Assembly (NCBI RefSeq): GCF_023701485.1
Contig: NZ_JAMQBK010000046.1
Span: forward strand, 95,908 to 159,907
DNA from: Aporhodopirellula aestuarii
GTDB lineage: Bacteria; Planctomycetota; Planctomycetia; Pirellulales; Pirellulaceae
Reading direction: 5' to 3'
Length of the DNA: 64,000 bases
Part shown: positions 15,739 to 55,001 of the stretch, piece by piece
Numbering within the stretch: the stretch's first letter is position 1
Layout: each line of letters starts with the position of its first letter
The notes under the pieces: model-generated
Told to the model about the DNA's origin: nothing
Seen by the model: only the letters and a program-made list of their open reading frames with translations
The model's database searches: none
Program-made: the position numbers and the translations under genes

Positions 15739-16123
15739 CGAACCTCAATGGTACGAAACCTGCCTTCAGCACCTTTTGAGGGCAAAACGGGGACGGGGCG
15801 TCTATTTTTTGCTCGCAATTGCTTGATCCGAAGCAAACATTCGGCCACAACCATCAGGCCGGGTGGATGCACCAATCCTTGCGAAACGTGCGGTTTTCTC
15901 AATTTACATCGAGCAAAACACGGCAAATTCGTCTGGCAGTACTTCAGTATCGTTTGCGACAAGCCACGTTAGTGATGCCCAATCAAGATTGGCCTAACAA
16001 AGCTGAACCTTTATACTTCGCCATCGAAACCGCTAAGTCTTGGTATGGACTTTCGGTATCGAGCAAGAGGTCCAAACTCGTCAACGATGGCCCCGCCACT
16101 TTCTCATTGAAAGAACCAAGTTC
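15739..16123. other. Non-coding leader region upstream of glgP
   Basis: This 385-base stretch between the exonuclease and glycogen phosphorylase genes holds short open frames with no protein-like composition. A promoter-like pair lies at 15989-16017. Nothing else was recognised. Confidence 0.5.
15989..16017 (+). promoter_or_regulatory. Sigma70-like promoter for glgP
   Basis: A -35 TTGGCC (15989-15994) and a -10 TATACT (16012-16017) are separated by exactly 17 bases, predicting a start near 16024 and a leader of about 100 bases before the glycogen phosphorylase ATG. Planctomycete promoter rules are poorly known, so this is a consensus match only. Confidence 0.4.
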
Positions 16124-18643
16124 ATGTCCAACACCCTTACTGACTCCCCTTCCTCGAAGCAGCAATCGTCGAAAAATGCAATGCGGTCACTCGGATTGCT
16201 CGACCTTCCTGCGGACCTCCAGCGTCACCTGAACATCACCCTCGGGCTCGCCGATGTTGAGACGCCAGCGGAGAGCGAGTCTGACCAGCAATACCTGTAT
16301 CGTGCCTTGGCGATCACGGTGCGAGATCGCTTGGTACCGACATGGCAGAAAACCTGGAAGCGGATGAATGCGAGTGACGATCGCAAGGTTTACTACCTGT
16401 CCCTGGAGTTTCTGATCGGCCGATCATTGACCAACGCGATCCAAAACCTCAATTTGGACGACGAAGTTCGTGAAGCGTTGCACAACTACGGAATGCAACT
16501 CGAAACGATCGCGGATCGTGAACTCGACGCCGGGTTGGGCAACGGCGGCTTGGGACGACTCGCGGCATGTTTCCTCGACAGTTGCGCCAACCTGCAACTC
16601 CCGGTCATCGGATATGGGATTCGGTACGAATACGGGATGTTCCACCAACACATCGAGGACGGCCGTCAAGTCGAAGATCCCGATCACTGGCTCGCCGACG
16701 GCAACCCTTGGGAAATCAAACGCGACGAACACACTCGACGAATTCGCTTCTACGGCCGCCCGGAAACGTATCACGATGCGGACGGTACACTCAAGAAACG
16801 ATTGGTCGAAACACGCGACGTGCTCGCGGTTCCGTTTGACATGCCAATCCCGGGATACCAAAACGACACCGTCAACACCCTGCGTCTTTGGAAAGCATCG
16901 ACGACTGACGTGTTCGATCTCGCTGAGTTCAACGCGGGTAGTTATCCCGAAGCCGTCGCAGCCAAGACCGACGCCGAACAAATTTCGATGGTGTTGTACC
17001 CGAACGACGCCAGCGAAAACGGAAAAGAACTCCGCCTCAAACAACAGTACTTCCTGGTCTCGGCATCACTGCAGGATGTGATCCATCGATGGGTCGAAAA
17101 GTACGGAGAAGACTTCTCCGACTTTGGGCAAAAGAACTGCTTCCAACTCAACGATACGCACCCCGCGTGTGCGGTCCCCGAGTTGATGCGGCTGCTGATG
17201 GACGAACACGGCATGGACTGGGACGCTGCCTGGAAAGTGACAACGCGATGCATGGCGTATACCAACCACACGCTCCTGCCCGAAGCTCTCGAGCGATGGT
17301 CCGTGGGACTGTTCAGCCGGTTATTGCCACGCTTGCTCGAAATCATCTACGAAATCAACGCGAGATTCCTGAAACTCGTCGACCAACAATGGCCTGGCAA
17401 CATCGAAATGCGTCGCGAGATGTCGCTCATCGAAGAAGGGGACAACCCACACATCCGCATGGCCTATCTCGCCATCGTCGGCAGTTTTTCTGTCAACGGC
17501 GTGGCCGGATTGCACACGCAGTTGCTCGAAAGCGGTTTGTTCAAGAACTTCAGCGAAATGTGGCCGCGCAAGTTCAACAACAAAACCAATGGTGTGACTC
17601 AGCGTCGTTGGCTCTCGCACTGCAACCCAGGCCTGCGTGGCTTGCTCAACGAAACCATCGGCGAAGGATGGCAAACCGACCTCAGCAAGATCAGCGAACT
17701 GGCCCCATACGCCACGGACGCCTCGTTCCAAGAACGCTGGATCGATATCAAACTCGAAAACAAGAAACGCTTGACCGATCTGGTCGCCAAAAACACCGAC
17801 GTTCAGTTCGACACGTCGTTCATGTTTGACGTGCAAGTCAAACGGATCCACGAATACAAACGCCAACTGCTCAACGTCCTGAACGTGATCCATCTCTACG
17901 ATCGCATCCAACGAGGCGAAACCGCAGGCATGGTACCACGCTGTGTCCTGATCGGCGGGAAGGCGGCACCGGGATATCACGTCGCCAAATTGATCGTCAA
18001 ATTGATCAACGACGTCGCGTCGGTGGTCAACGCCGATCCGAAATGCAAGGACCTTCTGCGTCTGGTGTTCTTCCCCAACTATCGCGTTTCGTCGATGGAA
18101 GTGATCTGCCCGGCAACCGAGTTGTCCGAGCAAATTTCGACGGCGGGTAAAGAAGCATCGGGAACCGGGAACATGAAGTTCATGATGAACGGTGCCCTCA
18201 CCATCGGAACACTCGACGGAGCCAACATTGAGATCCGCGACAACGCCGGAGAAGAAAACTTCTTCCTGTTCGGGTTGGACGCAGCTGAAGTGGTTGAAAC
18301 CAAGAAGGACTACCGGCCCAACGAGATCATCTCAGCGGACGCCGAGATTGCCAGCCTGATGAACTTGCTCGAAAGCGGTCGATTTAACCCGACCAATCCT
18401 GGCCTGTTCGACTTGCTGACCGGTGGCCTGCGAAGCTCTCATGATCCATGGGTCACGATCGCCGACTTGCGAAGCTACATCGACGCCCAAAACGAAGTGG
18501 CGAAGGCGTACCAAGACCCGGCGCATTGGAACAAAATGAGCATCCTCAACACCGCCGGCAGCGGTTGGTTTAGCAGCGATCGCACGATCCAGCAGTACGC
18601 CCAAGACATCTGGGACGTACGGGCATTACCGCCGACCAACTGA
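16124..18643 (+). CDS. glgP: Glycogen/alpha-glucan phosphorylase
   Basis: The enzyme releases glucose-1-phosphate from the non-reducing ends of glycogen-like glucans using inorganic phosphate and pyridoxal phosphate. The 839-residue length is standard. Conserved elements include YYLSLEFLIGRSL, GLGNGGLGRLAACF, GYGIRYEYGMF, KRIHEYKRQLLN and the PLP-binding segment GTGNMKFMMNG (Lys near residue 685). The ATG at 16124 gives MSNTLTDSPSSK; the frame extends upstream to 16040, but that extension looks non-native. It could act on the glucan made by the amylosucrase 26 kb away, supplying glucose-1-phosphate to central metabolism. Confidence 0.97.
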   Translation: MSNTLTDSPSSKQQSSKNAMRSLGLLDLPADLQRHLNITLGLADVETPAESESDQQYLYRALAITVRDRLVPTWQKTWKRMNASDDRKVYYLSLEFLIGRSLTNAIQNLNLDDEVREALHNYGMQLETIADRELDAGLGNGGLGRLAACFLDSCANLQLPVIGYGIRYEYGMFHQHIEDGRQVEDPDHWLADGNPWEIKRDEHTRRIRFYGRPETYHDADGTLKKRLVETRDVLAVPFDMPIPGYQNDTVNTLRLWKASTTDVFDLAEFNAGSYPEAVAAKTDAEQISMVLYPNDASENGKELRLKQQYFLVSASLQDVIHRWVEKYGEDFSDFGQKNCFQLNDTHPACAVPELMRLLMDEHGMDWDAAWKVTTRCMAYTNHTLLPEALERWSVGLFSRLLPRLLEIIYEINARFLKLVDQQWPGNIEMRREMSLIEEGDNPHIRMAYLAIVGSFSVNGVAGLHTQLLESGLFKNFSEMWPRKFNNKTNGVTQRRWLSHCNPGLRGLLNETIGEGWQTDLSKISELAPYATDASFQERWIDIKLENKKRLTDLVAKNTDVQFDTSFMFDVQVKRIHEYKRQLLNVLNVIHLYDRIQRGETAGMVPRCVLIGGKAAPGYHVAKLIVKLINDVASVVNADPKCKDLLRLVFFPNYRVSSMEVICPATELSEQISTAGKEASGTGNMKFMMNGALTIGTLDGANIEIRDNAGEENFFLFGLDAAEVVETKKDYRPNEIISADAEIASLMNLLESGRFNPTNPGLFDLLTGGLRSSHDPWVTIADLRSYIDAQNEVAKAYQDPAHWNKMSILNTAGSGWFSSDRTIQQYAQDIWDVRALPPTN

Positions 18644-34732: not shown

Positions 34733-34972
34733 TACTGAAAACTCCGCGGTTTCGGCCCCCCGCGTGTTTAGAGCACGCACGAAGCCACATTGGTCAAAAA
34801 GAAGTCTCCGCAAATCGCGTGAACCCGGACATTCGGGAAAAATCGTCGCGCCGCCGGAAACCTTGGCAACGTGTACAATAATCTCACGAGGGGTTTCTGA
34901 AAACCGACGACTTTGGCGGTTTTTCCCGATTACTCAGATTGCCATTGGCGTGAATATCCGCCTGACGAATTG

Positions 34973-36103
34973 ATGCCCAAGCACCTGCCCCCGGATACCC
35001 GCCCCCGTTGGCCCGCGATGATCACATCGCTGGGGATGCACGTGCTGGTCTTGCTGGGCATGATTTGGCTGCTCGCATCTCGGCCCAGCCAGGGGACGGT
35101 GGAGGATGCCAACGTCCGAAGCGTCGGCATGGCCATCGCCCACCGCATGCCCGATCGGACGCGGTACGTCACCGAGCCCGAAGAGACGGCCAAGCTTCCA
35201 TTGGCGCCCCAATCGTCCACGGCAGCGGCCGCAACGGCTCCCGCTCCGCCCAAATCGACCTCAAAAACGTCAGCTGACGCCTCCTCCGATTCATCTGCCG
35301 CGGGCGGAACCTCCTCGTCAGAGCAAACCGCCACGGGGATCAAGCCGCCGATCGACCTGTCCAAAATCCTCGCCGAAATGACCGGTACCGGCAGCGCAAC
35401 CGGCACCGATCGCGGTAGCCAAAGTGGCAGCGGTGCGGGCGGTCCGGCATCGCTCGTCCACGGCCGCATCCGATTCGCCGACGGACGAACGGTCGATCAG
35501 CTCGGCGACCGAGAACTCGTCCCCGGAGTCGCCCGTTCCGGCCAAGGTGCCGGGACAACGACCACCCAAGTCTTCGGTGTTTCAGGAACCGGCAGCACGT
35601 TTGTCTACGTTTTTGACCGCAGCGAGAGCATGAAAGCTGCGGGATCGGCCCCCCTGCGGGCCTCCAAAACGGAGCTCATCCGCAGTCTCGAAACGTTAAC
35701 CGAACGTCAACAGTTTCAAATCATCTTCTACAACGATTCCGCCGACGTCTTTCGCAGTGAAGGGGATCGCATCGGACTGGTCACCGGCGAGGAGGCGACG
35801 ATCGAGCGGGCGAAAGAATTCGTCCGGCGAACCACCGCCATCGGCGGAACCGAACACGAAACAGCCCTTCGTATGGCACTGCGGTTGGCTCCAGACGTGA
35901 TCTTCTTCCTCACCGACGCCAAAATTCAGACGATGTCGCAACAGCAACTCGATGACATCACCCGCCGCGCCGAAAATGCGGGGACCACCATCCACGCGAT
36001 CCAATTCGGCACCGGCCCGCCACCGGCGAACACGTTTCTCGAACGTCTCGTTCGCCGCAACGGCGGCGGCTACCGCTACGTCGACGTAACCACGCTGCCT
36101 TAG
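34973..36103 (+). CDS. Membrane-anchored von Willebrand factor A-domain protein
   Basis: The 376-residue protein has an N-terminal membrane segment (MITSLGMHVLVLLGMIWLLA), a long Ala/Ser/Thr/Gly-rich linker (about 70-200), and a C-terminal VWA domain with the MIDAS start VFDRSESM (about 213-220), IIFYNDSADVF, and FFLTDAKIQTMS. The domain binds a divalent metal and a protein partner. The N-terminal anchor resembles the TonB/energiser type, but no TonB motif is present. The ATG at 34973 is preferred; the frame begins earlier at 34913. Confidence 0.85.
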   Translation: MPKHLPPDTRPRWPAMITSLGMHVLVLLGMIWLLASRPSQGTVEDANVRSVGMAIAHRMPDRTRYVTEPEETAKLPLAPQSSTAAAATAPAPPKSTSKTSADASSDSSAAGGTSSSEQTATGIKPPIDLSKILAEMTGTGSATGTDRGSQSGSGAGGPASLVHGRIRFADGRTVDQLGDRELVPGVARSGQGAGTTTTQVFGVSGTGSTFVYVFDRSESMKAAGSAPLRASKTELIRSLETLTERQQFQIIFYNDSADVFRSEGDRIGLVTGEEATIERAKEFVRRTTAIGGTEHETALRMALRLAPDVIFFLTDAKIQTMSQQQLDDITRRAENAGTTIHAIQFGTGPPPANTFLERLVRRNGGGYRYVDVTTLP

Positions 36104-36136: not shown

Positions 36137-38920
36137 TTAAGCACCAGACGACGCAAAAACGGCCGCATGATTGGGCAACAACTCAAACGGTTGCTCCGTC
36201 GTCACCCCCGCGCGACGTCGACTATCGAGAATGCAAGGCGGCAGACCATCCGCCATACCGAGCAACGCGGCGACTTCTTGCTCCGACATACCATCGGCTT
36301 GGGGCCTCACCTGCTCGCTCGATTCGGCCAATCGGCATACGACCAGCAGCGTTTCACCCTCGCGAGTGAATTTCAACGAATAGACACCTCGGTCGATGTC
36401 GGTAATGGCCAAACAATTCGCCGCTGCCAGAATCCCCGCTCGCGTGTACTGCTTGCGAACCCGAATGACTTCGCGATACCAATCTCGCATCGCCAGATCT
36501 CCGTCTTCGATCGCTCCGATGCGGGCAGAATGAAACGCAATTTCTTCGGTGGGCAACACACCGTCGGACCAGTCGTGCTGCGGATACTCACGTCGTCTCC
36601 CTTCGATAACGGCTTGCCGCAGCGACTCATCCCCATAGTCGACGAAGAATGCGAACGGTTTCTCGCACGCAAACTCTTCCCCCATGAACAACATCGGAAT
36701 CGACGGTGACAAGATCAACAACACCGCAGCGGATGCTTGTGTCTCCGGCGCAGTGATTTGGTGAAATCGTTTTCCGAGCGGATGATTGCCGATGAAGTCG
36801 TGATTTTGAATGCAGTACACGAGCCCCGATGTGTCCACCCGCTCGGCCGTTGCGACCGAAACCTCTTCCCGCCCCCGATCACCCCGGACATCACCTTGAA
36901 ACACGAACCCACGTTGGAGGGCACGAGCAAGATCCACGTAGGGATGGTACCGCCTAACGGTCAATTGATCGTGTGCTCGCACACACGCCAACAGCGCGTG
37001 GGCAAAATCATCTCCCCACTGGGCGTCGAATCCACAACCGCCGTCCTCCAAAGGCACCGTCATCGACGAGTCATACACGTTCGTTTCGGCGATCAACCAA
37101 ACGCGCCGCCCTTGCGATTGCGACCACTGTCGGACCTCACGACCAAACTGACGGGTGATATGCTCTTCGCTGTCGTCTTTCATGCAATGAATCGCATCCA
37201 CCCGCAGCCCGTCGAGATGAAACTCATCGAGCCAATAGATCGCGTTGTCGATCACAAACCGTCGAATCGCTTGGGCCTCCGGCCCTTCATCAAAATTCGG
37301 CGCCGCTCCCCACGGAGTGCCATGCCGGTCCGACAGATAATTCCCCAGGTTTGACCAATAGTTACCTTCAGGACCGAAATGGTTGTAAACCACGTCGGCA
37401 AAAACGTGTAAGCCTCTCGCGTGTGCGGCATCAACCAATCGACGCAAATCATCCGGCGTGCCCAGCGAACTCATCGGGGCAAACCAATACGTCGCGTCGT
37501 ACCCCCAGTTCCAACGCCCCGGACATTGGGCAATCGGCATCAACTCAATCGCCGTCACGCCGAGGTCGACAAGCTCGTCCAACCGTTCGATCGCGCTTCG
37601 AAACGTTCCGTCATCGGTGAACGTTCCGATGTGCAACTCATACACGATCAATTCTTCAACACGCTGGGCACGAGGTTGGTCGTCATGCTGCCAAGGGAAC
37701 TGATTCGAGACCACTTGCGAGGCGGCATTTACCCCGTCGGGCTGATAACGCGAGGCGGGATCGGGGATCACTGGCGGGCCAGGCACCACATCGGTCGCTG
37801 AAGAACCAAGCCGGAGGCGATAACGTGTTCCGATCGGACAGGCGTCATCACTCGCCCGAAAAAAGCCTTCGGCGTCGCGTTTCATCTCAATCTGCCGCGG
37901 CGTCGCGTCGTCCGCCTCGTCGCACTCGTACAGTTCGATCGCGAGCGATTCGTGAGCGGGTGCAAACACCAAAAAGTCGACCTTTTGAAAGCCTTTCGGA
38001 ACGGCTCCCCAATGCATAGGTGCGACGCAATTCTCGACCATGGCTTCGTCCTGGCCGGCAACCAAACCAAACCACCGCAGCCCCTCGAGGACTCCCGCGG
38101 TGCTCGGTTTCAAGGCGAGGAACAATCGGTCATGCCAGCCGCGATCCGCGTGAGCATCGAATACCTGCACTGCCAGACGACGGCTCGCGTTGCCAACCAC
38201 AACGGCGCAGTAACCGGCAACCAGTGCGGCATAGTCGTTGCCTGAATCCCCGCAGAACACGATCTCGCCGTGTTGATATCCCTGCGACTCACACCACCAA
38301 TCCAGGGCGAACGCCTTCGATGCGTCACGTGGGAGAACGTCGATGAGCCCGTCGCCGTTAAACGGATCAACACTACTGATGATCCCGTACGGCAACGAAC
38401 GCTCATCGAGATACGCTTGCGCGGCGACCTGACACTCTTCGAGAGATTCCGCGGGCACATAGTAGCTGAGCTTATGCTTGCCTTGCTTGAACGCTTCTTG
38501 CAAACGAAACTTCGGCAGGTCACCGATCTCGCGGCGAACACGCTCGATGTCGGCATCCCCAACGATCTCATCCAACCTCGCATCGAAATCCTCGCTCCGG
38601 CGAAAGCGCGCGGCGAGCGATTGCTGCGTCGGCGAGTGTTCCTTATCACTGCTTTCTTCCGATTGCCCTAAAAAGTTTTGGTAAACGCTCGTACCGACAT
38701 CACACAGGATCCAGTCCGGCACGGGGAGGCCGTCCTCGATGATTCCGTCAAACACATATTCGAGATGACGGCCTGAAACGTAGACGAGCGGCAACCGTCT
38801 TTCACGCAATTGGCCTCGTATTTGCTCCAGGGCCTCAAAAGATTCGCGGTCACCATCAAGCGGGATAAAAGTGCCATCAAGATCAGTTGCAACAACTCGC
38901 GGACGCTGTTTCAGTTTCAT
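36137..38920 (-). CDS. HAD phosphatase fused to TreZ-like GH13 enzyme
   Basis: Residues 1-~260 form a HAD-IIB/sucrose-phosphatase-like domain: VVATDLDGTFIPLDG near residue 10, VYVSGRHLEYV, and VFCGDSGNDYAALVAG near 223. After a linker and a carbohydrate-binding-like region, a GH13 catalytic barrel of malto-oligosyltrehalose trehalohydrolase (TreZ) type occupies about 400-850: ELHIGTFTDDGTF, DVVYNHFGPEGNYW (region I), LDGLRVDAIHC (region II nucleophile), LIAETNVYD (region III acid/base) and QNHDFIGNH (region IV). All catalytic residues are intact. TreZ hydrolyses maltooligosyl-trehalose, but its usual partner TreY is absent here, so the substrate is uncertain. It diverges from fructokinase and the sucrose-phosphate synthase operon. 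Confidence 0.88.
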   Translation of the reverse strand: MKLKQRPRVVATDLDGTFIPLDGDRESFEALEQIRGQLRERRLPLVYVSGRHLEYVFDGIIEDGLPVPDWILCDVGTSVYQNFLGQSEESSDKEHSPTQQSLAARFRRSEDFDARLDEIVGDADIERVRREIGDLPKFRLQEAFKQGKHKLSYYVPAESLEECQVAAQAYLDERSLPYGIISSVDPFNGDGLIDVLPRDASKAFALDWWCESQGYQHGEIVFCGDSGNDYAALVAGYCAVVVGNASRRLAVQVFDAHADRGWHDRLFLALKPSTAGVLEGLRWFGLVAGQDEAMVENCVAPMHWGAVPKGFQKVDFLVFAPAHESLAIELYECDEADDATPRQIEMKRDAEGFFRASDDACPIGTRYRLRLGSSATDVVPGPPVIPDPASRYQPDGVNAASQVVSNQFPWQHDDQPRAQRVEELIVYELHIGTFTDDGTFRSAIERLDELVDLGVTAIELMPIAQCPGRWNWGYDATYWFAPMSSLGTPDDLRRLVDAAHARGLHVFADVVYNHFGPEGNYWSNLGNYLSDRHGTPWGAAPNFDEGPEAQAIRRFVIDNAIYWLDEFHLDGLRVDAIHCMKDDSEEHITRQFGREVRQWSQSQGRRVWLIAETNVYDSSMTVPLEDGGCGFDAQWGDDFAHALLACVRAHDQLTVRRYHPYVDLARALQRGFVFQGDVRGDRGREEVSVATAERVDTSGLVYCIQNHDFIGNHPLGKRFHQITAPETQASAAVLLILSPSIPMLFMGEEFACEKPFAFFVDYGDESLRQAVIEGRRREYPQHDWSDGVLPTEEIAFHSARIGAIEDGDLAMRDWYREVIRVRKQYTRAGILAAANCLAITDIDRGVYSLKFTREGETLLVVCRLAESSEQVRPQADGMSEQEVAALLGMADGLPPCILDSRRRAGVTTEQPFELLPNHAAVFASSGA

Positions 38921-39104
38921 TTATTTTTTTGTTTTTTTTGGATTGCTTAGTTTTTTTGGCGTGCTTCGTCCAGCACTTTCGGGCCGCTATGATAGATGCA
39001 TACCAGAGCCAACCGATCTCTGCGGATCGGATGTTCGCAAACGCGTTTGGTTTGATCTGGCTTCATCAATTCCGGCTACCTCTACGAAGGATACCCATAC
39101 GACT

Positions 39105-40070
39105 ATGTCCGACTCACCTGCCGCCATCATCGTAGGGGAAGTATTGTGGGATTGCTTTTCAGAACAAGATGGTGGCCGCCAAATACTCGGCGGTGCCCCG
39201 CTCAACGTCGCTTGGAATCTCGCCGGTTTCGGACTCGATCCATTGTTCATCAGCGCTGTCGGCGACGATGACCTCGGCCACGAGATCTTATCCCGCATGA
39301 AGAGCTTTGGCATGGCAACCCAAGGGGTCGCGGTATTGCCGGGCGTGGCCACCGGAACGGTGCAAGTCACGCTTGAAAACGGCGAACCTAAATACGATAT
39401 CGTTCGCGGTGTGGCTTGGGACCAAATCCCAATGCCGACACACGAACTATCCGAAATGATCAGTGATCGCATGGCTGCGGCACATCGGGCTCACCTGCCC
39501 GCGCTGTTTTATCACGGCAGTCTTGCATTCCGTGATCCACGATCCCGCACCACGCTCATGAAACTGCGTGACTTGATCTTGCATGATCCGATTCGCGCCA
39601 ATGCCTTTTTTGACGTCAACCTGCGTGCCCCGCACTATGAACAGGACATCCTGAAGGAGCTTCGCAAATCCGCTTCGTTCATCAAACTAAATCTCGATGA
39701 GTTGAACGAACTCAATGGCGGTGGAAGCGATGATCCGGTCGAACGCACGATGGTGGCTGGTCGCGAGTTTGAAAAAGATCCTTCGCAAGTACCGCTTTCC
39801 GGCCTACTCGTGACGCTCGGTGCGGAAGGTGCGTTGTGCTACACCCCCGGCTGCAGCGAACCGCTGCGGGTGAAATCTCCCGAACCCGAAAAGATGGAAG
39901 ACCCCGTCGGCGCAGGCGACGCGTTCGCCGCGGTGGTTCTTCACGGTATCCTGACGGATAGACCATTCACCAATTCGCTTCATGACGCGGTCGCTTTCGC
40001 ATCGAAGGTATGTTCTCTCAAAGGGGCAACATGCGACGACCCGCATTTCTATCGTTTTTCTTCTTCATAA
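39105..40070 (+). CDS. PfkB-family carbohydrate kinase, probable fructokinase
   Basis: The 321-residue protein is a ribokinase-fold sugar kinase. It has the N-terminal IIVGEVLWDCF and GGAPLNVAWNLAGFGLDP of fructokinases, NAFFDVNLRAPHY, and the C-terminal PfkB signature DPVGAGDAFAAVVLHG with the catalytic Asp. It should phosphorylate fructose to fructose-6-phosphate with ATP. The context supports this, because amylosucrase in the same operon releases fructose. The ATG at 39105 is chosen over an upstream extension to 38871. It precedes sucrose-phosphate synthase by 30 bases. Confidence 0.9.
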   Translation: MSDSPAAIIVGEVLWDCFSEQDGGRQILGGAPLNVAWNLAGFGLDPLFISAVGDDDLGHEILSRMKSFGMATQGVAVLPGVATGTVQVTLENGEPKYDIVRGVAWDQIPMPTHELSEMISDRMAAAHRAHLPALFYHGSLAFRDPRSRTTLMKLRDLILHDPIRANAFFDVNLRAPHYEQDILKELRKSASFIKLNLDELNELNGGGSDDPVERTMVAGREFEKDPSQVPLSGLLVTLGAEGALCYTPGCSEPLRVKSPEPEKMEDPVGAGDAFAAVVLHGILTDRPFTNSLHDAVAFASKVCSLKGATCDDPHFYRFSSS

Positions 40071-40100: not shown

Positions 40101-42368
40101 ATGCATTCGCCTGACCACGACGGGCTCCGAATTACGTTACTCAGTCTTCATGGACTCGTTCGCGGCCATGATCCTGAATTAGGACGTGACGCCGACACCG
40201 GCGGCCAAATCAAATACGTGCTCGAACTCGCCCGCGAACTCGCCACCCGCGATGAAGTCGCGTCGGTTGAACTCGTCACGCGGCAGTTGATCGATGATCG
40301 CGTCGGCCCCGACTACGCCCAAGTCGAAGAACCGTTGTGCGACAAGGCAAAAATTATCCGTGTCCCCTTTGGGCCGCGTCGATACCTGCGTAAGGAGGCG
40401 TTGTGGCCTTACCTGGAAACCTTCATCGATCAAATGCTCGGCCATTATCGACGGACGGGGCTGCCCGATTTAATTCATGGGCACTACGCCGATGCCGGTT
40501 ACGCAGGCGCCCAACTCTCGCGTCTGCTGCACATTCCATACGTGTTCACCGGACACTCTCTCGGCCGCGTCAAACGAGAACGGATGCTTGCGTCGACGGC
40601 GAAATCAAAGAATCCAAAATCCCCCGAGGACTTGGACAAGAAGTTCAAATTTAAAGTTCGAGAAGAGGCAGAAGAAACTGCTCTCGAAACCGCCTCGATG
40701 GTGATTACGAGCACCGGACAAGAGGTCGAGCAACAGTACTCGATTTACCACCACTACCAACCAGACCGAATGGAAGTGATCCCGCCTGGCGTGGACCTGA
40801 CCCACTTCTATCCCGACGATGCTGCCGAACCACTGCCGCCAATTTATGACAAACTATTGCCGTTTCTCCGCGAACCGGAAAAACCGATGGTGTTGGCGAT
40901 GGCGCGGCCGGACGAACGCAAGAATCTCGAAATGCTCGTCCGCGTCTATGGTGAAAACCCCAAGATGCAGGAGGCCGCCAACCTTGTTCTCGTCATGGGC
41001 GGACGCGATGACTTGCGGCAACTCGCGCCATCCCAGCGGAAGGTGATCACCAATGTGCTGCATCTGATCGACGTCTACAATCTCTACGGAAAAGTCGCCT
41101 ATCCGAAGTCCCACCGCCCCGCCGACGTGCCCGATCTGTATCGTCTCGTCGCTCGCCAAAAGGGGGTCTTCGTCAACCCGGCGATGACCGAACCGTTCGG
41201 TCTGACCCTACTCGAAGCTGCCGCTTCGGGGGTACCGATCGTCGCGACCAACGATGGCGGGCCTCGCGACATCATCGCCAACTGCCAAAACGGTCTCCTG
41301 ATCGATCCGTTTGATCCTGAATCGATCGACCATGCGATCATGCGTTGTTTGACCGAACCCGATCAATGGGAGATTTGGTCCAAGGCCGGCATCGTGGGCA
41401 CGCGAGAGCATTACAGTTGGAGGCATCACGTCGATCGCTATCTGCGCGATGTTTCCGAGATTATCGAAGCATCCGCGCCACCGGCACTCGCGAAACCTGA
41501 CCGCCGAACATCGAAGCGACTGCCTGAATTCGACCGGATCATCATGACCGACCTCGACAACACCCTCACCGGTGATGAAGAGGCACTAAACGAATTTGTT
41601 GACCTGTTGAAGCACGCGGGCAAAGACGTCGGATTCGGAATTGACACCGGCCGATCTCTTTCCGAAGCAATGAGCCTCATCAATGAACTCGGCCTGCCAC
41701 GTCCCGACGTGTTGTCGACCGCCGTTGGCACCGAATTGTACTACGGTAGCGACCTGACACCCGATCGTTCTTGGTACCAACAGATTGCCCACTGTTGGAA
41801 CCCCAAGCTCGTGCATGAGGTGCTCGACGAGATGCCAGGCCTCTTCCTGCAAAAAGATAAAGATCAGACGGAATTTAAGATCAGTTATCGGATCGATCCG
41901 GAAGTGGTCCAGTCCATCGATACCGTACGCAAACGCCTGCGGGAGGCGGGCCTGAGAGTCAATCCGATCCTGTCGCTCGGGTCGTTCTTGGACATCATCC
42001 CGATCCGCGGTGGCAGTGAACTTTCGCTGCGGCACCTCGCGTATCGATGGGGATTCGAGCCCGAACACATCCTCGTCGCCGGTGACTGCGGCAACGACGA
42101 AGGCATGCTCAAAGGCGCCACCCTCGGGGTGGTCGTCGGCAACTACAGCCCCGAGCTCGAAAAGTTGAGACGATTGCCCCGGATCTACTTTGCAAAGGGA
42201 CACCACGCTAGAGGTGTGCTTGAGGGAATCGAATACTACGATTTCCTCAACCACATCCGGATCCCCAACGACAAAGTGGAAGCCGACTCTACCAACGAAG
42301 ACACGAACTATACGGACACAACCGAGCCACAAAAGCCGCGTGACGCAGCCTCTCGGTCGGCCGGTTAA
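40101..42368 (+). CDS. Bifunctional sucrose-phosphate synthase/sucrose-phosphatase
   Basis: Residues 1-~475 are a GT4 sucrose-phosphate synthase domain: [78 protein letters not shown]. It joins a nucleotide-activated glucose and fructose-6-phosphate. Residues from about 480 form a HAD sucrose-phosphatase domain with [17 protein letters not shown] (nucleophile Asp near 484), [11 protein letters not shown] and [12 protein letters not shown] (about 659-670), so both HAD catalytic motifs are kept. The protein can plausibly make free sucrose on its own. It lies between fructokinase and amylosucrase. Confidence 0.93.
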
Positions 42369-42637: not shown

Positions 42638-44632
42638 ATGATTGCCCTGAAACTCAATTCCCCAAAGATCGTCGCAACCGGAAACGCCGCCGCCCGACGG
42701 AGCGATTCCCGTGCCTACGTCGCTCTGGAGAGAATGCTGCCCACATTGGAAGCGTTCTGGGAAGCCGAAGACGTGGACCAGTCAGAAGTCGACGAAATGA
42801 TGGAGCGACTGCAGCGGCACTGGCCGCGATTGTTCCAATTGCTCCTGGGGCTCTACGGGGAAAAATGGGACTTTTTCTATCACCTCGAACAGATTCTGAT
42901 GACGATGGTTCGCGGGTGGCGGATGCGGGACGAGGCACTGCGAGAAACCGATCGGCATCGAATCAATAACCCCGGTTGGTATACCTCCGAAAAACTGGTT
43001 GGGGGTGCCCTCTACGTCGATCTGTTCAGCGAAAATCTTGGTCGCCTGCGCGATCAGATTCCGTACTTCCAAAAACTCGGCCTGACATACCTGCACCTGA
43101 TGCCGCTCTTCGCGGTCCGCCCGGGAAACAATGATGGCGGTTACGCGATTAGCAACTACCGCAGTGTTGACCCACGTGTCGGGACGATCGACGATCTCAA
43201 AGATCTCGCCGCGGCGCTGCGCGAGGCCGGGATCCTGTTGGTTCTCGACTTCGTCTTCAACCACACCGCCGACGATCACTACTGGGCCCAGCAAGCCCAG
43301 TCCGGTGCCGAAGAGTTCTGCGATTACTATTTCATGTTCCCCGATCGGACGATGCCCGATCAGTATGAACGAACGCTGCGTGAAATTTTCCCAACCGTTC
43401 GCCGCGGCAGTTTCACCTGGCATGACGGCATGCATCGTTGGATCTGGACGACGTTTAATAGTTTTCAGTGGGATCTGAACTACCGGAATCCCGAAGTCTT
43501 CCGCGCGATGCTGGCCGAAATGCTGTTCATCGCCAACACCGGAGTCGACATCTTGCGTCTCGACGCGGTTGCATTCATCTGGAAGCAAATGGGAACGATG
43601 TGTGAGAACCTCCCCGAGGCACATCAAATCATCCAAGCCTTTAACGCGTGTTCGCGGATCGCGGCACCGGGGCTTGTGTTCAAAAGCGAGGCGATCGTTC
43701 ACCCCGACGAAGTCGTACGGTATATCAGCGAAGACGAATGCCAAACTTCATACAACCCGACCTTGATGGCGCTGCTATGGGAATCGCTGGCCACCCGCAG
43801 CACCAAACTTTTACAACGGTCCCTCTCCCGACGCCATAAACTGCCGCATCGCACCACGTGGGTAAACTACCTTCGCTGCCATGATGATATCGGATGGACG
43901 TTTGATGACGACGATGCCGCCGCAGTCGGAATCAATGCATACGACCACCGACATTTCTTAAACGCGTTCTACACCGGTCAATTCGAAGGATCTTTCGCTC
44001 GCGGCGTTCCGTTCCAACACAACATGGACACGGGCGATATGCGAATCAGCGGCACGTTGGCGTCACTCGCGGGCCTTGAACAGGCGATCGAACAAGACCG
44101 TGAAGACCTCAAAGAACTCGCCATTCGCAGGATACTCCTGCTCAATGCGTCGATGCTCAGTGTGGGCGGTATCCCGCTGATTTATCTCGGCGAGGAGTGG
44201 GGCGCCCTGAACGATTATGACTTCGTCAAAGATCCTGCCAAAGCGGGCGACACCCGCTGGGTCCACCGCCCGAAAATGCAATGGACGTTCTTAGATGAAC
44301 TCGGTGACGACGGATCGATCCGCGCCCGCATCTTCACGTCATTGCAAAAACTGATCGACATTCGAAAACGCACGCCCGCTTTCTCCGGGCTCGAAATGGA
44401 ACTGATCTCGACGCAATCGGAACAGCTGCTGGCTTACGTACGCACCGAAGCGGCCAATCGTGTGATCGTCGTTTCCAACTTCAGCGAATTCCCGCAGACA
44501 ATCGACTCCAACCGCTTGCGAACGGCGGGGATGGGTCGATTCTTCGAAGATCTGTACACCGGTGAGACGATCACAACAGCCAACGACATCCAATTGGAAC
44601 CGTATCAATTCCTCTGGTTGCATCGAGCCTAA
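42638..44632 (+). CDS. Amylosucrase (GH13 subfamily 4)
   Basis: The 664-residue protein matches amylosucrase, which transfers glucose from sucrose to a growing alpha-1,4-glucan and frees fructose. It has the helical N-terminal domain, [25 protein letters not shown] (region I), [17 protein letters not shown] (region II nucleophile), [12 protein letters not shown] (region III acid/base) and [11 protein letters not shown] (region IV). The long GH13_4-specific loop and the C-terminal beta domain are present. There is no signal peptide, so it acts in the cytoplasm. It lies 269 bases downstream of sucrose-phosphate synthase. Confidence 0.95.
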
Positions 44633-51038: not shown

Positions 51039-54000
51039 ATGAGCTCGTCACCTTCCTCGCGTTCTTTTCTCGAACGTCCCGGCCCGCTGGGAACCAGCAT
51101 GGCATTGCTGGTCCTGATGGGGTTCTTCTTTATTCTGCCATCGGCGTTTCGTGGCGCCCGCTCGGGGCTGCAGAACAAAGAGAACGACATCAAAGATTGG
51201 CTGCCGAGCGATTTCCCTGAAACCGCCGAACTGGATTGGTTCGCCGAGCATTTCGCCGGGGAGAGTTTTGTGTTGGCGACATGGCCCGGCTGCACCGTCG
51301 GTGATCAGCGGTTGCACCTACTCGAAAACAAGCTGCTCCACGAATCAGCGGACTTCCGCAAACAACTGCTCGCGGAAGAAGCCGATGCGGCGAGTGGCCT
51401 CTCGCTTGCCGAACGGCGCACCCGCGTGCGGGCCCGTGCTCTCGGTGAGGAGCTCAAGCTCCTCCCGCCCGGCCAAGACCTCGACAATTGGGGCGGCAGG
51501 GACGAAAAGTGGGTCGCCTCCGCCAATGGAACGTGGTACTTCATCACCCCTGACGGTCGATTCTATCGTTGGGAAGAAGCCAACAACGGTCCCGCCGGTC
51601 TGCTGCGGGCGATCAAGAAAGCGATCGGCCAGTATCACCTCGACGGGAAACTCGTCACCGCCCTGGGCGAACCATCGACCCCGGAAAAGATCAACGAGTT
51701 CTACAACGACCCTACATTGCTGTGCGCCCCCTTGTTTGAAACCGTTCAAACCGGAGCCACAATCGTCAGCGAACTATCGGCCGAAGGCGGGGCGCTTTGG
51801 CCCGTGGATACGACGGATCCCGAAAAGCGACCGCTCGTGGCCAGACGCCGCGCCATGGAACGCTTGACGGGCAGCCTGTTTGCACCGGCGGTCCCGCCCG
51901 GTTTCGAATGGACAGTCGCGGATTTTGTTGAAGTTTTGCCTCCAGAAAAACGCGAGAAACTGCCTACCGACTACGAGTTCATCGTTAACTCAACGCTGCA
52001 GGACTTTGCTGACGATCGGTTGGATGGAAATCCCGATGCCATCTCCAGTGCAATCACTCCGGTGCAGACCGACGCGTGGTACGCCGTCTTTGACGCATTG
52101 GAAATAGAAGCACCGCCACGCCTGACTTGCATCCTGGTCACGTTGACCGATTTGGCCAAAGACAATTTGGCATACGCGATCGGACGTGGCACGCTGGGCA
52201 GTCCCCAAGGTCGCTTACTGGCTCTTGCCGAACAAAGCGGCGTGCATCCGCCATCACCACCGTCGACGGCCCCACCACCGTTCAATCGTGAACCGCCGGA
52301 AACCGTCGGCTCGCTGCCTCCGCTTCGTATGGGTGGACCCCCGATCGATAACATCGCGATCGACGAAGAAGGTACCGTGACGTTGGTGCGATTGATCGGA
52401 TACTGCATCTTGATCGGTGTTGGTCTGTCGTATTTTTGCTTCCGCAGCATCAAGACGACACTCATGCTGTTTATCGTCGGTGGTTCTGCCGCCATGCTTT
52501 CGATGGCCATGGTCGGATGGACGGGAGGACGGGTCGACGCGATTCTCTTGAGCATGCCGTCGCTGGTTTATGTGCTTGGTCTCTCCGGCGCGATTCACGT
52601 GATCAATTACTATCGCGATGAAGTCCGCGTGCGTGGCCAACGCGGAGCCGCGGGCCGGGCGTTACGACATGCGTTACTGCCCTGCACACTCGCCGCCGTC
52701 ACCACCGCGATCGGGCTTGGTTCTCTCTACACGAGCAACCTCAAACCGATCAGCAACTTCGGGCTCTATTCCGCGATCGGTGTGATCGCGACGCTCGCGA
52801 TTCTGTTCTCGTACTTGCCCGCCGCACTTGAGGTGTTCGCACCCAAGTTTGTCGACCGCAAAAAAACGAAGAAACCAAAGGCGGACAATACCGCCAAAAC
52901 TTCCGAGCACCCGGACCCTACCGCCGCGTTCCCGATCAAAACCGACATGGGATTGGCAGCTTGGTGGGTCGCGTTCGGACGGTTCATTACTGGGCACCAC
53001 CGAGCCGTCGCGATCACTTGTATGCTCTTATTGGCAATCGCTTCGCTGGGACTGTTTCGCATCACCACGTCGGTGCAGTTGCTCAAACTGTTCGACTCCA
53101 ACGCCCGGATCCTCCGCGACTACGCATGGCTAGAAGAGAACTTCGGCAAACTCGTCCCGATGGAAATCGTGGTCCGGATGCCGCCTGAGTTGCAGCACGA
53201 TTTTGCCAGCCCTTCGACCGTTGCGGCCAAGGCGGAACGGGGTGAACCGGGTGCTGCCGAAGAAGCGATTTCACTTGATTTACTCGAACGCATCGAAGCG
53301 GTGTCAAGGATTCGAATCGCCGTCACGCGGACCCTCGGCGAAGAGGGGACCGGCGAGGTTGGTCAAGCGTCGAGCATGGACACGTTCTTGCCGCCGTTGC
53401 CAGGTGTGAGTCGAGGATGGAGTACCGTTCGCAGCACGATGCGACAACGCATTGGCGAATCAAAAGACAAAATGCTCGACAGCGACTACGTCAAAATCGA
53501 GGAACACGGTCCGCTCGCCGGCAGCGAAATGTGGCGTCTGAGTTTGCGAGTCAGTGCCTTGTCGGATAACGATTACGGTCTGTTCATCAACGATCTACGT
53601 GATGTCGTCTCCCCGGTGATCGAGGCCTACCGTACGCGTGCCGCGTTGCTAACCGCGTTGAGTGAATCGAAATCCGGCATCACGGGCAAACAACGCATCC
53701 TGATCGTGGGTAGTGATCGGGTCAAAGGTCTCGCCGAAGCAACACTCGTCAACGCAGACGGTTCGGTCAACGCAGCGGCAGTCTTCCTGAGTACCCTGCA
53801 CGAGTTGGTTGAAAATGAACAGGTTCAACGACCACACTGGATCGACCCCAAAAACCCCAAACTGCAACCCCAACCGGGAAGCGAGGCGTGGGACCGAACG
53901 ATCGCAAATTACGATGCCGTGATTTGGGTCGATGGGATCGAAACCTCGTTAGTCAGCCAACGCGGCAACGGCGAACCGCTGCATCTTGGCGCTGCGTCGA

Positions 54001-55001
54001 AAGCGTCTGAGTTTTTGGCAGCGGCAAAAATCGTCATCCGTGCTGACGAGATTGCGGCCACCCCGATCGGTAAAGAGATTGTGAGGGTCGCACCCACGCC
54101 TCACGACCACAACAACCCGCATGCGGTTCGAATTACCAAGGGCGATCGTCAGGTTCCCGTGTTCGACGTCAAGAATGCGATAGCGCCGCAAGTCGTGTTC
54201 ACCGGCGTCGTGCCGGTCGTCTACAAAGCTCAACGGACGCTGCTGGGCAGCTTGCTCGAATCGATCATGATGGCCTTTGTGCTGATCGGCCTCGTGATGA
54301 TCGTCTTGCTCAACCCCGGTAGTTTCCCATCACAATGGCTCGCACCGCGGAACCTCCTCGACGGCATCGCCGCCGGTGCGGTTTCGATGATCCCCAACCT
54401 CTTTCCGGTATTGCTGATATTCGGATTGATGGGAATCGCCGGAATTGCGGTCGACATTGGAACGATGATGACCGCGTCGGTGGCGATGGGTGTCGCCGTC
54501 GACGACACGATTCACTTCTTATCGTGGTATCGCCAATTCCTCGAAGAGAACAAATCGCGATACGAAGCGGTGATTGAAACGTATCGCAAAGTCGGCCCCG
54601 CGATGACGCAAACGACGATCGTCGGCGGTCTTGGCTTATTCGTGTTCGCGTTGTCCACGTTCACGCCGACGCAACGCTTCGGTACGTTGATGCTGGTCAT
54701 GCTCGCCGCAGCTTTGGTGGGCGATTTAATCTTGTTGCCCGCGTTGCTGGTTAGCCCACTCGGCAAGTGCTTTAAGCCGCGACTGGGTTTTTCAGCCGGA
54801 CCGAAGGACGACTCCGATGGCCTCAAGAGCAGCGACAACGACGATCTCGTTACCGCTTGGCAAACCGACGTGGCTGAATCGGGCACATCAGAAATCACCG
54901 CGACCGGCACGGGTTCCATGATCGCGTCCGAAGACATTCCCGTTCTCAAGGTTCACTCGCCGCCCTCGCGGACGAATTCGAATCAACCGAAACGGAAATA
55001 G
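51039..55001 (+). CDS. RND-superfamily (MMPL-like) transporter
   Basis: The 1320-residue protein has the RND plan: a first membrane helix (GTSMALLVLMGFFFILPSAF), a large extracytoplasmic domain of ~400 residues, a membrane bundle (LVRLIGYCILIGVGLSYFCF, LLSMPSLVYVLGLSGAIHVIN, FGLYSAIGVIATLAILFSYL), and then a second half with ITCMLLLAIASLGLFRITTS, another large domain, and a final bundle with VAMGVAVDDTIHFLSWYRQF and TIVGGLGLFVFALSTF. Members export lipids, hopanoids or similar hydrophobic cargo by proton motive force; the cargo here is unknown. The acidic C-terminal tail is low complexity. Confidence 0.9.
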   Translation: MSSSPSSRSFLERPGPLGTSMALLVLMGFFFILPSAFRGARSGLQNKENDIKDWLPSDFPETAELDWFAEHFAGESFVLATWPGCTVGDQRLHLLENKLLHESADFRKQLLAEEADAASGLSLAERRTRVRARALGEELKLLPPGQDLDNWGGRDEKWVASANGTWYFITPDGRFYRWEEANNGPAGLLRAIKKAIGQYHLDGKLVTALGEPSTPEKINEFYNDPTLLCAPLFETVQTGATIVSELSAEGGALWPVDTTDPEKRPLVARRRAMERLTGSLFAPAVPPGFEWTVADFVEVLPPEKREKLPTDYEFIVNSTLQDFADDRLDGNPDAISSAITPVQTDAWYAVFDALEIEAPPRLTCILVTLTDLAKDNLAYAIGRGTLGSPQGRLLALAEQSGVHPPSPPSTAPPPFNREPPETVGSLPPLRMGGPPIDNIAIDEEGTVTLVRLIGYCILIGVGLSYFCFRSIKTTLMLFIVGGSAAMLSMAMVGWTGGRVDAILLSMPSLVYVLGLSGAIHVINYYRDEVRVRGQRGAAGRALRHALLPCTLAAVTTAIGLGSLYTSNLKPISNFGLYSAIGVIATLAILFSYLPAALEVFAPKFVDRKKTKKPKADNTAKTSEHPDPTAAFPIKTDMGLAAWWVAFGRFITGHHRAVAITCMLLLAIASLGLFRITTSVQLLKLFDSNARILRDYAWLEENFGKLVPMEIVVRMPPELQHDFASPSTVAAKAERGEPGAAEEAISLDLLERIEAVSRIRIAVTRTLGEEGTGEVGQASSMDTFLPPLPGVSRGWSTVRSTMRQRIGESKDKMLDSDYVKIEEHGPLAGSEMWRLSLRVSALSDNDYGLFINDLRDVVSPVIEAYRTRAALLTALSESKSGITGKQRILIVGSDRVKGLAEATLVNADGSVNAAAVFLSTLHELVENEQVQRPHWIDPKNPKLQPQPGSEAWDRTIANYDAVIWVDGIETSLVSQRGNGEPLHLGAASKASEFLAAAKIVIRADEIAATPIGKEIVRVAPTPHDHNNPHAVRITKGDRQVPVFDVKNAIAPQVVFTGVVPVVYKAQRTLLGSLLESIMMAFVLIGLVMIVLLNPGSFPSQWLAPRNLLDGIAAGAVSMIPNLFPVLLIFGLMGIAGIAVDIGTMMTASVAMGVAVDDTIHFLSWYRQFLEENKSRYEAVIETYRKVGPAMTQTTIVGGLGLFVFALSTFTPTQRFGTLMLVMLAAALVGDLILLPALLVSPLGKCFKPRLGFSAGPKDDSDGLKSSDNDDLVTAWQTDVAESGTSEITATGTGSMIASEDIPVLKVHSPPSRTNSNQPKRK

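What the first reader, a model, noticed from the sequence alone, without database searches (positions are those of the whole stretch)
36137..38920. Fusion of a HAD sugar-phosphatase with a TreZ-like GH13 enzyme
One 927-residue frame joins an apparently intact HAD-IIB phosphatase (DLDGTF and GDSGND present) to a TreZ-type barrel with all GH13 catalytic regions. TreZ normally works with TreY, which is absent from this window. Placement opposite the sucrose operon suggests the fusion couples sugar-phosphate dephosphorylation with alpha-glucan trimming, perhaps making a compatible solute. The motifs are seen directly; the coupling is inference.
Basis: partly seen in the sequence, partly recalled or inferred. 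Interest (0 to 1): 0.7.

Follow-up and report, generated by a model that had tools for sequence, protein, structure and literature searches.

The report
Two-headed sucrose enzyme of planctomycetes
One protein of these bacteria joins an intact phosphatase domain, which likely finishes the making of sucrose, to a starch-cutting type of domain that descends from a trehalose-releasing enzyme but has lost key residues that grip trehalose, so it is predicted to release some other sugar.

Summary
The fusion is real. One uninterrupted 927-residue frame at 36137-38920(-) carries an S6PP-type HAD domain (residues 1-289) and a TreZ-type GH13 domain (300-927), with the catalytic residues of both present. 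It occurs in 13 of 13 genomes of its genus and in other planctomycetes. The HAD fills the spp slot of an SPS/amylosucrase/fructokinase cluster. In 34 of 34 such SPS proteins read, the built-in phosphatase domain has lost its phosphate-binding lysine, so the separate or fused HAD is likely the working sucrose-6-phosphate phosphatase. The GH13 half is probably not an ordinary TreZ. No TreY, TreS or OtsA over threshold was found in the genome, nor in any of 24 class genomes where I identified this GH13 clade. Glucan-side residues are kept, but Y325, Q378, R382 and mostly F352/R353 of Sulfolobus TreZ are replaced by a new conserved pattern (HD-x-x-GNHP). It most likely trims alpha-1,4-glucan from the reducing end; releasing sucrose from sucrose-ended glucan is the bold, untested alternative. 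Nothing was assayed.

The parts
36137..38920 (-). HAD (S6PP-type)::GH13 (TreZ-derived) fusion, 927 aa
38054..38920 (-). [not shown]
38024..38053 (-). linker, residues 290-299, pLDDT under 50
36140..38023 (-). TreZ-derived GH13 domain, residues 300-927; D575, E612, D708 kept
36779..36790 (-). GNHP motif (residues 711-714), the new-clade signature in place of GNR of canonical TreZ
38921..39104 (.). intergenic stretch between the divergent fusion and kinase genes; no sigma-70-like promoter found by the scan
39105..40070 (+). PfkB-family sugar kinase, probable fructokinase (start taken as the in-frame ATG at 39105 of ORF 38871-40070)
   Evidence: conserved divergent neighbour in the genus
40101..42368 (+). 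sucrose-phosphate synthase with C-terminal SPP-like domain (TIGR02472 712 bits, TIGR02471 352.8 bits, both over cut-off)
42015..42017 (+). Ser639 of SPS at the position of the HAD motif-III lysine (K163 of Synechocystis SPP): lysine lost
42638..44632 (+). amylosucrase (best PDB match Neisseria polysaccharea amylosucrase 1g5a, 718.5 bits)

Best explanation
This 927-residue protein is a conserved planctomycete fusion of a sucrose-phosphatase-type HAD domain with a TreZ-derived GH13 domain: the HAD half likely finishes sucrose synthesis for the neighbouring sucrose-phosphate synthase, whose own phosphatase domain has lost its phosphate-binding lysine, and the GH13 half is predicted to cut alpha-1,4-glucan with a leaving group other than trehalose. 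Shown by sequence: both catalytic sets are present, the SPS lysine is lost, the glucan-side residues are kept and most trehalose-side residues are replaced. Inferred: SPS makes sucrose-6-phosphate and the HAD domain removes the phosphate. Inferred: amylosucrase moves glucose from sucrose onto alpha-glucan, the kinase recycles the fructose, and the GH13 half trims glucan from the reducing end, most likely giving maltose or glucose that can feed back to sucrose. The fusion would thus put the sucrose-releasing step and a glucan-mobilising step on one chain in a sucrose/glycogen cycle. My split: HAD is the sucrose-6-phosphate phosphatase, 0.8; GH13 half does not work as a TreZ, 0.75; its product is maltose or glucose 0.35, sucrose 0.25, trehalose 0.12, other 0.28.
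Against: The window protein misses the NCBIfam SPP equivalog cut-off (TIGR01485 72.4 of 183.65 bits). G208 has the fusion although its SPS keeps the lysine and lies elsewhere. Of the 4 lysine-keeping SPS genomes read, G279 and G121 also have a TreZ-like gene without any HAD. Fusions in G208, G344, G401 and G348 have no SPS or amylosucrase in the stretch fetched. Of the 26 HAD/SPS genomes, 7 have the HAD but no match at this clade's level to the GH13 half. The GH13 clade also occurs without SPS, HAD or close amylosucrase in G267, G255 and G283, so it has some role without sucrose synthesis. Arg at the R353 column is kept in 12 of 30 clade members, the window among them. Four lone clade members score over the TreZ cut-off (539.1 to 600.8 against 538.8), so database naming does not separate them. 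G303 has only a divergent HAD (38% identity). Active-site loops are weak in the model (465-474, 748-752 under pLDDT 50), so no substrate was docked. Loss of the lysine predicts, but does not prove, a dead SPP domain. Nothing was assayed.
Confidence: 0.6

Rival explanations
1. Ordinary TreZ with an SPP fused on: the GH13 half still releases trehalose from maltooligosyltrehalose made by an unrecognised TreY substitute, so one chain serves both sucrose and trehalose, matching the salinity switch between the two solutes in R. baltica.
For: R. baltica accumulates trehalose in a medium with glucose, salts and vitamins (PMC3694870 abstract, sections 3, 5 and 18). The genus has no TreS over cut-off (0 of 13), and the window genome has no TreY, OtsA or TreS over threshold, so its trehalose route is open. 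Some clade members pass the TIGR02402 cut-off.
Against: Y325 is lost throughout the clade and F352/R353 mostly, while the glucan side is kept. TreY is absent in 24 of 24 clade genomes, whereas 51 of 74 canonical TreZ loci have TreY in the fetched flank.
Confidence: 0.12
2. Sucrose-releasing GH13: the GH13 half cuts the alpha-1,4 bond next to a sucrose unit at the end of malto-oligosyl-sucrose, as TreZ does next to trehalose, so both heads of the protein release sucrose.
For: Glucan-side residues unchanged, leaving-group side replaced by a new conserved pattern. 21 of 24 clade genomes have an SPS of either type; fused to an SPP-type HAD; directly downstream of sucrose synthase and SPS in G279.
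Against: G208 and G279 lack amylosucrase at the threshold used, so the supposed source of sucrose-ended glucan is missing there. G267, G255 and G283 have the GH13 enzyme but no SPS. No structural evidence that sucrose fits.
Confidence: 0.25
3. The HAD half acts on a different sugar phosphate (mannosylfructose-phosphate, or a glucosylglycerate-type phosphate) and the SPS-SPP protein makes sucrose unaided.
For: Several database sources name stand-alone relatives 'Mannosylfructose-phosphate phosphatase'. The SPS keeps its own SPP-like domain with its GDxGND motif, and DxDNT in all but one of those checked. R. baltica also makes mannosylglucosylglycerate.
Against: The motif-III lysine of that SPP domain is gone in 34 of 34 read. 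The HAD occurs in the 26 genomes with this SPS and amylosucrase, plus G208. I saw no test behind those names.
Confidence: 0.15
4. Accidental joining: a sequencing error or a recent fusion without function.
For: In relatives of the same family the halves are separate genes.
Against: 117 of 120 best hits are full-length fusions; 13 of 13 genomes of the genus; purifying selection on both halves; no internal stop.
Confidence: 0.02

Closest known systems
Maltooligosyltrehalose trehalohydrolase TreZ (GH13, EC 3.2.1.141; 1eh9, 2bhu, TIGR02402)
   Different: +2 residue Y325 lost and F352/R353 mostly, GNHP for GNR, no TreY in the genome, fused to a phosphatase
Sucrose-6-phosphate phosphatase SPP (HAD-IIB; Synechocystis 1s2o, PF05116)
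   Different: A five-residue cap insertion (usually SVDPFNGDGL or close) absent from the SPP and SPS domains aligned; fused to GH13; below the SPP equivalog cut-off
spsA-sppA-frkA-amsA operon of Synechococcus PCC 7002 (PMC11046441 section 3.3) and the Sps/Spp/FruK/Ams enzyme set of a methanotroph (PMC8062543 one passage)
   Same: The same four activities; amylosucrase links sucrose to alpha-glucan
   Different: Here SPS carries a lysine-less SPP domain and the spp slot is filled by the HAD or HAD-GH13 protein
Bidomainal SPS with non-functional phosphohydrolase domain (Synechocystis; PMC4390843 passages)
   Same: SPS with a probably dead SPP-like domain plus a separate phosphatase
   Different: The separate phosphatase is fused to a GH13 enzyme in several lineages

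Membership tests
SPP / S6PP (HAD-IIB) | PF05116 over gathering score | tested here: met
   175.9 bits against 20.3
SPP / S6PP (HAD-IIB) | HAD catalytic set: Asp nucleophile and acid, Ser/Thr, Lys, GDxxxD | tested here: met
   window; in 117 fusions Lys 117, D225 117, D229 117, nucleophile 116 (one gap), second Asp 115 (one gap, one Ala), Ser/Thr 116 (one gap)
SPP / S6PP (HAD-IIB) | NCBIfam SPP equivalog TIGR01485 over cut-off | tested here: not met
   72.4 against 183.65 bits; I therefore claim 'likely works as an SPP', not membership in that equivalog
SPP / S6PP (HAD-IIB) | Hydrolysis of sucrose-6-phosphate | not testable with these tools
   needs assay
TreZ (EC 3.2.1.141) | GH13 triad D252/E283/D377 | tested here: met
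   117 of 117; 30 of 30
TreZ (EC 3.2.1.141) | Trehalose (+2) subsite residues Y325, F352, R353 | tested here: not met
   Y325 kept in 0 of 117 fusions and 0 of 30 clade members, against 72 of 74 canonical. F at the F352 column in 3 of 117. Arg at the R353 column is kept in 37 of 117 and 12 of 30, the window included, in a gappy stretch
TreZ (EC 3.2.1.141) | Partner TreY in the genome | tested here: not met
   window genome 0 over cut-off; 0 of 24 clade genomes
TreZ (EC 3.2.1.141) | TIGR02402 equivalog cut-off 538.8 | tested here: inconclusive
   window 530.9 and G151 531.1 below; four lone clade members 539.1, 544.6, 563.3, 600.8 above; six canonical partial translations 684.6 to 739.5
TreZ (EC 3.2.1.141) | Trehalose release from maltooligosyltrehalose | not testable with these tools
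   needs assay
Amylosucrase-linked sucrose cluster (sps-spp-frk-ams) | SPS, SPP-type phosphatase, fructokinase and amylosucrase together | tested here: met
   window and 12 of 12 further genus genomes fetched

The most novel reading that the evidence does not exclude
A new GH13 specificity: a TreZ-derived 'malto-oligosyl-sucrose sucrohydrolase' that frees sucrose from the end of sucrose-capped alpha-glucan chains, fused to a sucrose-6-phosphate phosphatase, so that both heads of one protein release the same osmolyte, one from new synthesis and one from glucan.
Probability: 0.25. Interest if true: 0.8.

Novelty: new variant of a known kind. Interest (0 to 1): 0.55.

Why it matters
It identifies the likely missing phosphatase of sucrose synthesis in salt-adapting planctomycetes whose SPS seems to have lost its own. 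It also defines a clade of TreZ-like GH13 enzymes, often named as trehalose enzymes, in genomes with none of the three trehalose routes tested. One protein expressed and assayed would settle both, and would test where the trehalose of Rhodopirellula comes from.

Tried and rejected
Frameshift or assembly artefact: rejected. TreY elsewhere in the genome: none over cut-off. TreS: the window genome has no match over cut-off, nor has any of 13 genus genomes (best 605.6 of 678.35 bits in G501). Hidden HAD remnants in the long N-termini of the GH13 frames of G255 and G283: none found with an HMM built here; those extensions look like spurious frame. Gene neighbours of the lone GH13 genes gave no clear partner except in G279; I read these by eye and did not scan them against family libraries. 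One fusion or two: the GH13 tree puts the window with lone enzymes of its own family (weak support), the HAD tree puts it with other fusions (87%, not starred, long branches); left open between an old fusion later split and two fusions. Fold search with the whole model is filled by the GH13 half; 1s2o is the only HAD row among the 50 shown. Promoter scan of the intergenic stretch: nothing. Rows left out: one duplicate row (L104) from the tree; one search aligned the HADs of 20 of the 27 genomes; one search used those 20 HADs and 17 of the 24 GH13 rows. Match lists (best 120 of 6907), 13 and 68 are cut off at the low end; one search scored at most 4 candidates a genome. I read the signature only in loci that were fetched, so lower-scoring TreZ genes of the class were not classed. 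TreT and TreP were not searched. Papers: searches were read as listings; (Rhodopirellula with trehalohydrolase) returned none; within this open library and these terms I saw no description of the fusion.

Full report

It is conserved. Among the 120 best of 6907 database hits, 117 are full fusions by my criterion. Among listed matches the fusion is in 2 of 149 genomes of an even phylum sample, 12 of 198 of the class and 24 of 199 of the family, including 13 of 13 of the window's genus. By equal contig length the hosts include Rhodopirellula sp. P2, R. halodulae, Allorhodopirellula solitaria, Neorhodopirellula pilleata, Crateriforma spongiae, Gimesia alba and G. aquarii, and Posidoniimonas polymericola. 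G447, with one contig of 7,145,576 bases, is R. baltica SH1 if my recall of that genome's length is right. In the genus both halves evolve under constraint: dN/dS was 0.045-0.145 for HAD and 0.048-0.074 for GH13 in 8 of 9 pairs tested; in the ninth dS was saturated, and dS is above 1 throughout, so the values are rough.

Sucrose context. Opposite the gene lie a PfkB kinase, an SPS with a C-terminal SPP-like domain and an amylosucrase. The arrangement is the same in 12 of 12 further genus genomes fetched. In other lineages the fusion lies just downstream of SPS and amylosucrase on the same strand (G151, G249, G235, G069, G245), and in G214 a lone HAD sits in that slot. Of the larger loci with a HAD, SPS and/or amylosucrase is in the fetched stretch in 16 of 19 (not G208, G170, G303) and 16 of 20 (not G401, G348, the G344 fusion, or G458, whose HAD is near a contig end). 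In 198 genomes of the class the HAD domain occurs in 27, an SPS over the TIGR02472 cut-off in 27, and a close amylosucrase (65% identity or more) in 26. Comparing the lists, 26 genomes hold all three. The exceptions are G208 (HAD fusion, SPS below cut-off, no amylosucrase at the threshold) and G206 (SPS over cut-off with its lysine kept, no HAD). Fisher p for HAD against SPS is 3e-30, without correction for relatedness.

Why a second phosphatase. SPS here already has an SPP-like domain. Its motif-III lysine, which contacts the phosphate in Synechocystis SPP (Lys-163; PMC5113954 passages), is replaced in all 34 SPS proteins of this type that I read: 19 by alignment (of the class's 26) and 15 by motif. 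Serine or proline stands there; it is Ser639 in the window. Four proteins of the other SPS type, of 12 in the class, were read and keep it (G206, G208, G121, G279). All 20 HADs aligned keep the lysine, and so do 117 of 117 fusions. SPS with a non-functional phosphohydrolase domain beside a separate SPP is known from Synechocystis, and bifunctional SPS with intact residues from S. elongatus (PMC4390843 passages). The spp slot is part of the spsA-sppA-frkA-amsA operon of Synechococcus 7002 (PMC11046441 section 3.3). The simplest reading is that the HAD is the working sucrose-6-phosphate phosphatase. G208, with an intact lysine and the fusion, does not fit this complementation and is unexplained.

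The GH13 half. I compared 30 members of the new clade (24 from the class, 6) with 74 canonical enzymes, in 1eh9 numbering. The triad and the glucan-side residues Y152, D153, H192, W215 and R444 are identical in 30 of 30 and, but for one R444K, in 74 of 74; E447 is kept in 24 of 30. On the other side of the cut the picture reverses. Y325 is kept in 0 of 30 against 72 of 74. Q378 is kept in 0 of 30 against 74 of 74. R382 is His in 29 of 30 and Gln in 1, against Arg in 67 of 74. A256 is Cys, Phe or Tyr against mostly Ala or Gly. The F352/R353 stretch is gapped in 17 of 30, yet Arg stands at the R353 column in 12, the window among them. Y325, F352 and R353 are assigned to the +2 subsite of TreZ, and changes there and at A256 raise glucose release relative to trehalose release (PMC3716775 passages; the glucan-side residues are named there too, three numbers higher). 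Q378 and R382 follow the third catalytic Asp; I found no subsite assigned to them. The new pattern (HD-x-x-GNHP) is itself conserved: H713 in 113 of 117 and P714 in 116 of 117 fusions. That argues for a new specificity rather than decay. The 24 class rows form one starred branch of length 0.75.

Trehalose routes. None of those 24 genomes has TreY (62 of 198 do), TreS (62 of 198) or OtsA (41 of 198) at the thresholds used. Of the 80 loci kept from the species-level collection, 6 have the GNHP pattern: five in planctomycete records and one labelled only 'bacterium'. None of the 6 has TreY in the fetched flank; of the other 74, 51 do (flanks vary in length). R. baltica nevertheless accumulates trehalose in a medium of glucose, salts and vitamins and shifts to sucrose as salinity rises (PMC3694870 abstract, sections 3, 5 and 18). 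A 2009 array study names a treS, RB519 (PMC2754498 passages), yet 0 of 13 genus genomes have TreS over cut-off. TreT and TreP were not searched. So trehalose from the GH13 half cannot be excluded and stays as a rival.

Limits of the sucrose link for the GH13 half. Of the 24 genomes, 21 have an SPS of either type. Three (G267, G255, G283) have no SPS, HAD or close amylosucrase. In the genus of G267 and G255, G513 still has SPS-AMS-HAD. Seven HAD/SPS genomes list no match at this clade's level for the GH13 half (G137, G024, G194, G178, G170, G214, G165). In eight class genomes the halves are separate genes (six of one genus, G332, and G303 with a diverged HAD). G344 has both a lone HAD in its SPS operon and, elsewhere, a fusion whose HAD part is diverged (32% identity). 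The GH13 half therefore has a job that can stand apart from sucrose synthesis. General glucan trimming fits this better than a strictly sucrose-specific role, which is why the latter is put forward only as the novel case.

How it most likely works. SPS forms sucrose-6-phosphate; the HAD head releases sucrose (inferred, well supported). Amylosucrase can drain sucrose into alpha-glucan and the kinase recycles fructose (established for the enzyme families). The GH13 head grips a glucan chain as TreZ does and cuts from the reducing end, releasing a small sugar that is not trehalose (predicted from residues). Placing both heads on one chain would keep their amounts equal when the cell moves carbon between glucan and sucrose. 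That last step is conjecture.

Noticed in passing
L268:7029-9665 and L269:9454-10413 (G344): One genome has a lone HAD in its SPS-amylosucrase operon and, far away, a second HAD-GH13 fusion with a diverged HAD part; G398 and G424 of the same genus also list both a fusion and a lone HAD.
   Followed up: partly
Genus of the window (G000, G447 and others): No TreS over cut-off in 13 of 13 genomes, although R. baltica accumulates trehalose and a treS gene (RB519) is named in print; the route is unclear and the label may sit on a GH13 alpha-glucosidase.
   Followed up: partly
L019/L104 (G121), L020, L113, L118: A second TreZ-like clade (starred, branch 1.13) with its own altered +2 region, although its G121 member scores 593.6 bits on the TreZ model; no TreY in G121, but two of its four members are in TreY genomes.
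   Followed up: no
L139:5506-12256 (G279): Sucrose synthase, SPS with intact lysine, then the lone GNHP-type GH13 gene in a row on one strand.
   Followed up: partly
window 16040-18643 (+): Glycogen/starch phosphorylase (PF00343, 1066.6 bits) about 20 kb from the sucrose cluster.
   Followed up: no
window 34913-36103 (+): Von Willebrand type A domain protein, convergent with the 3' end of the fusion gene.
   Followed up: no
window 51039-55001 (+): 1320-residue MMPL-family transporter-like protein.
   Followed up: no
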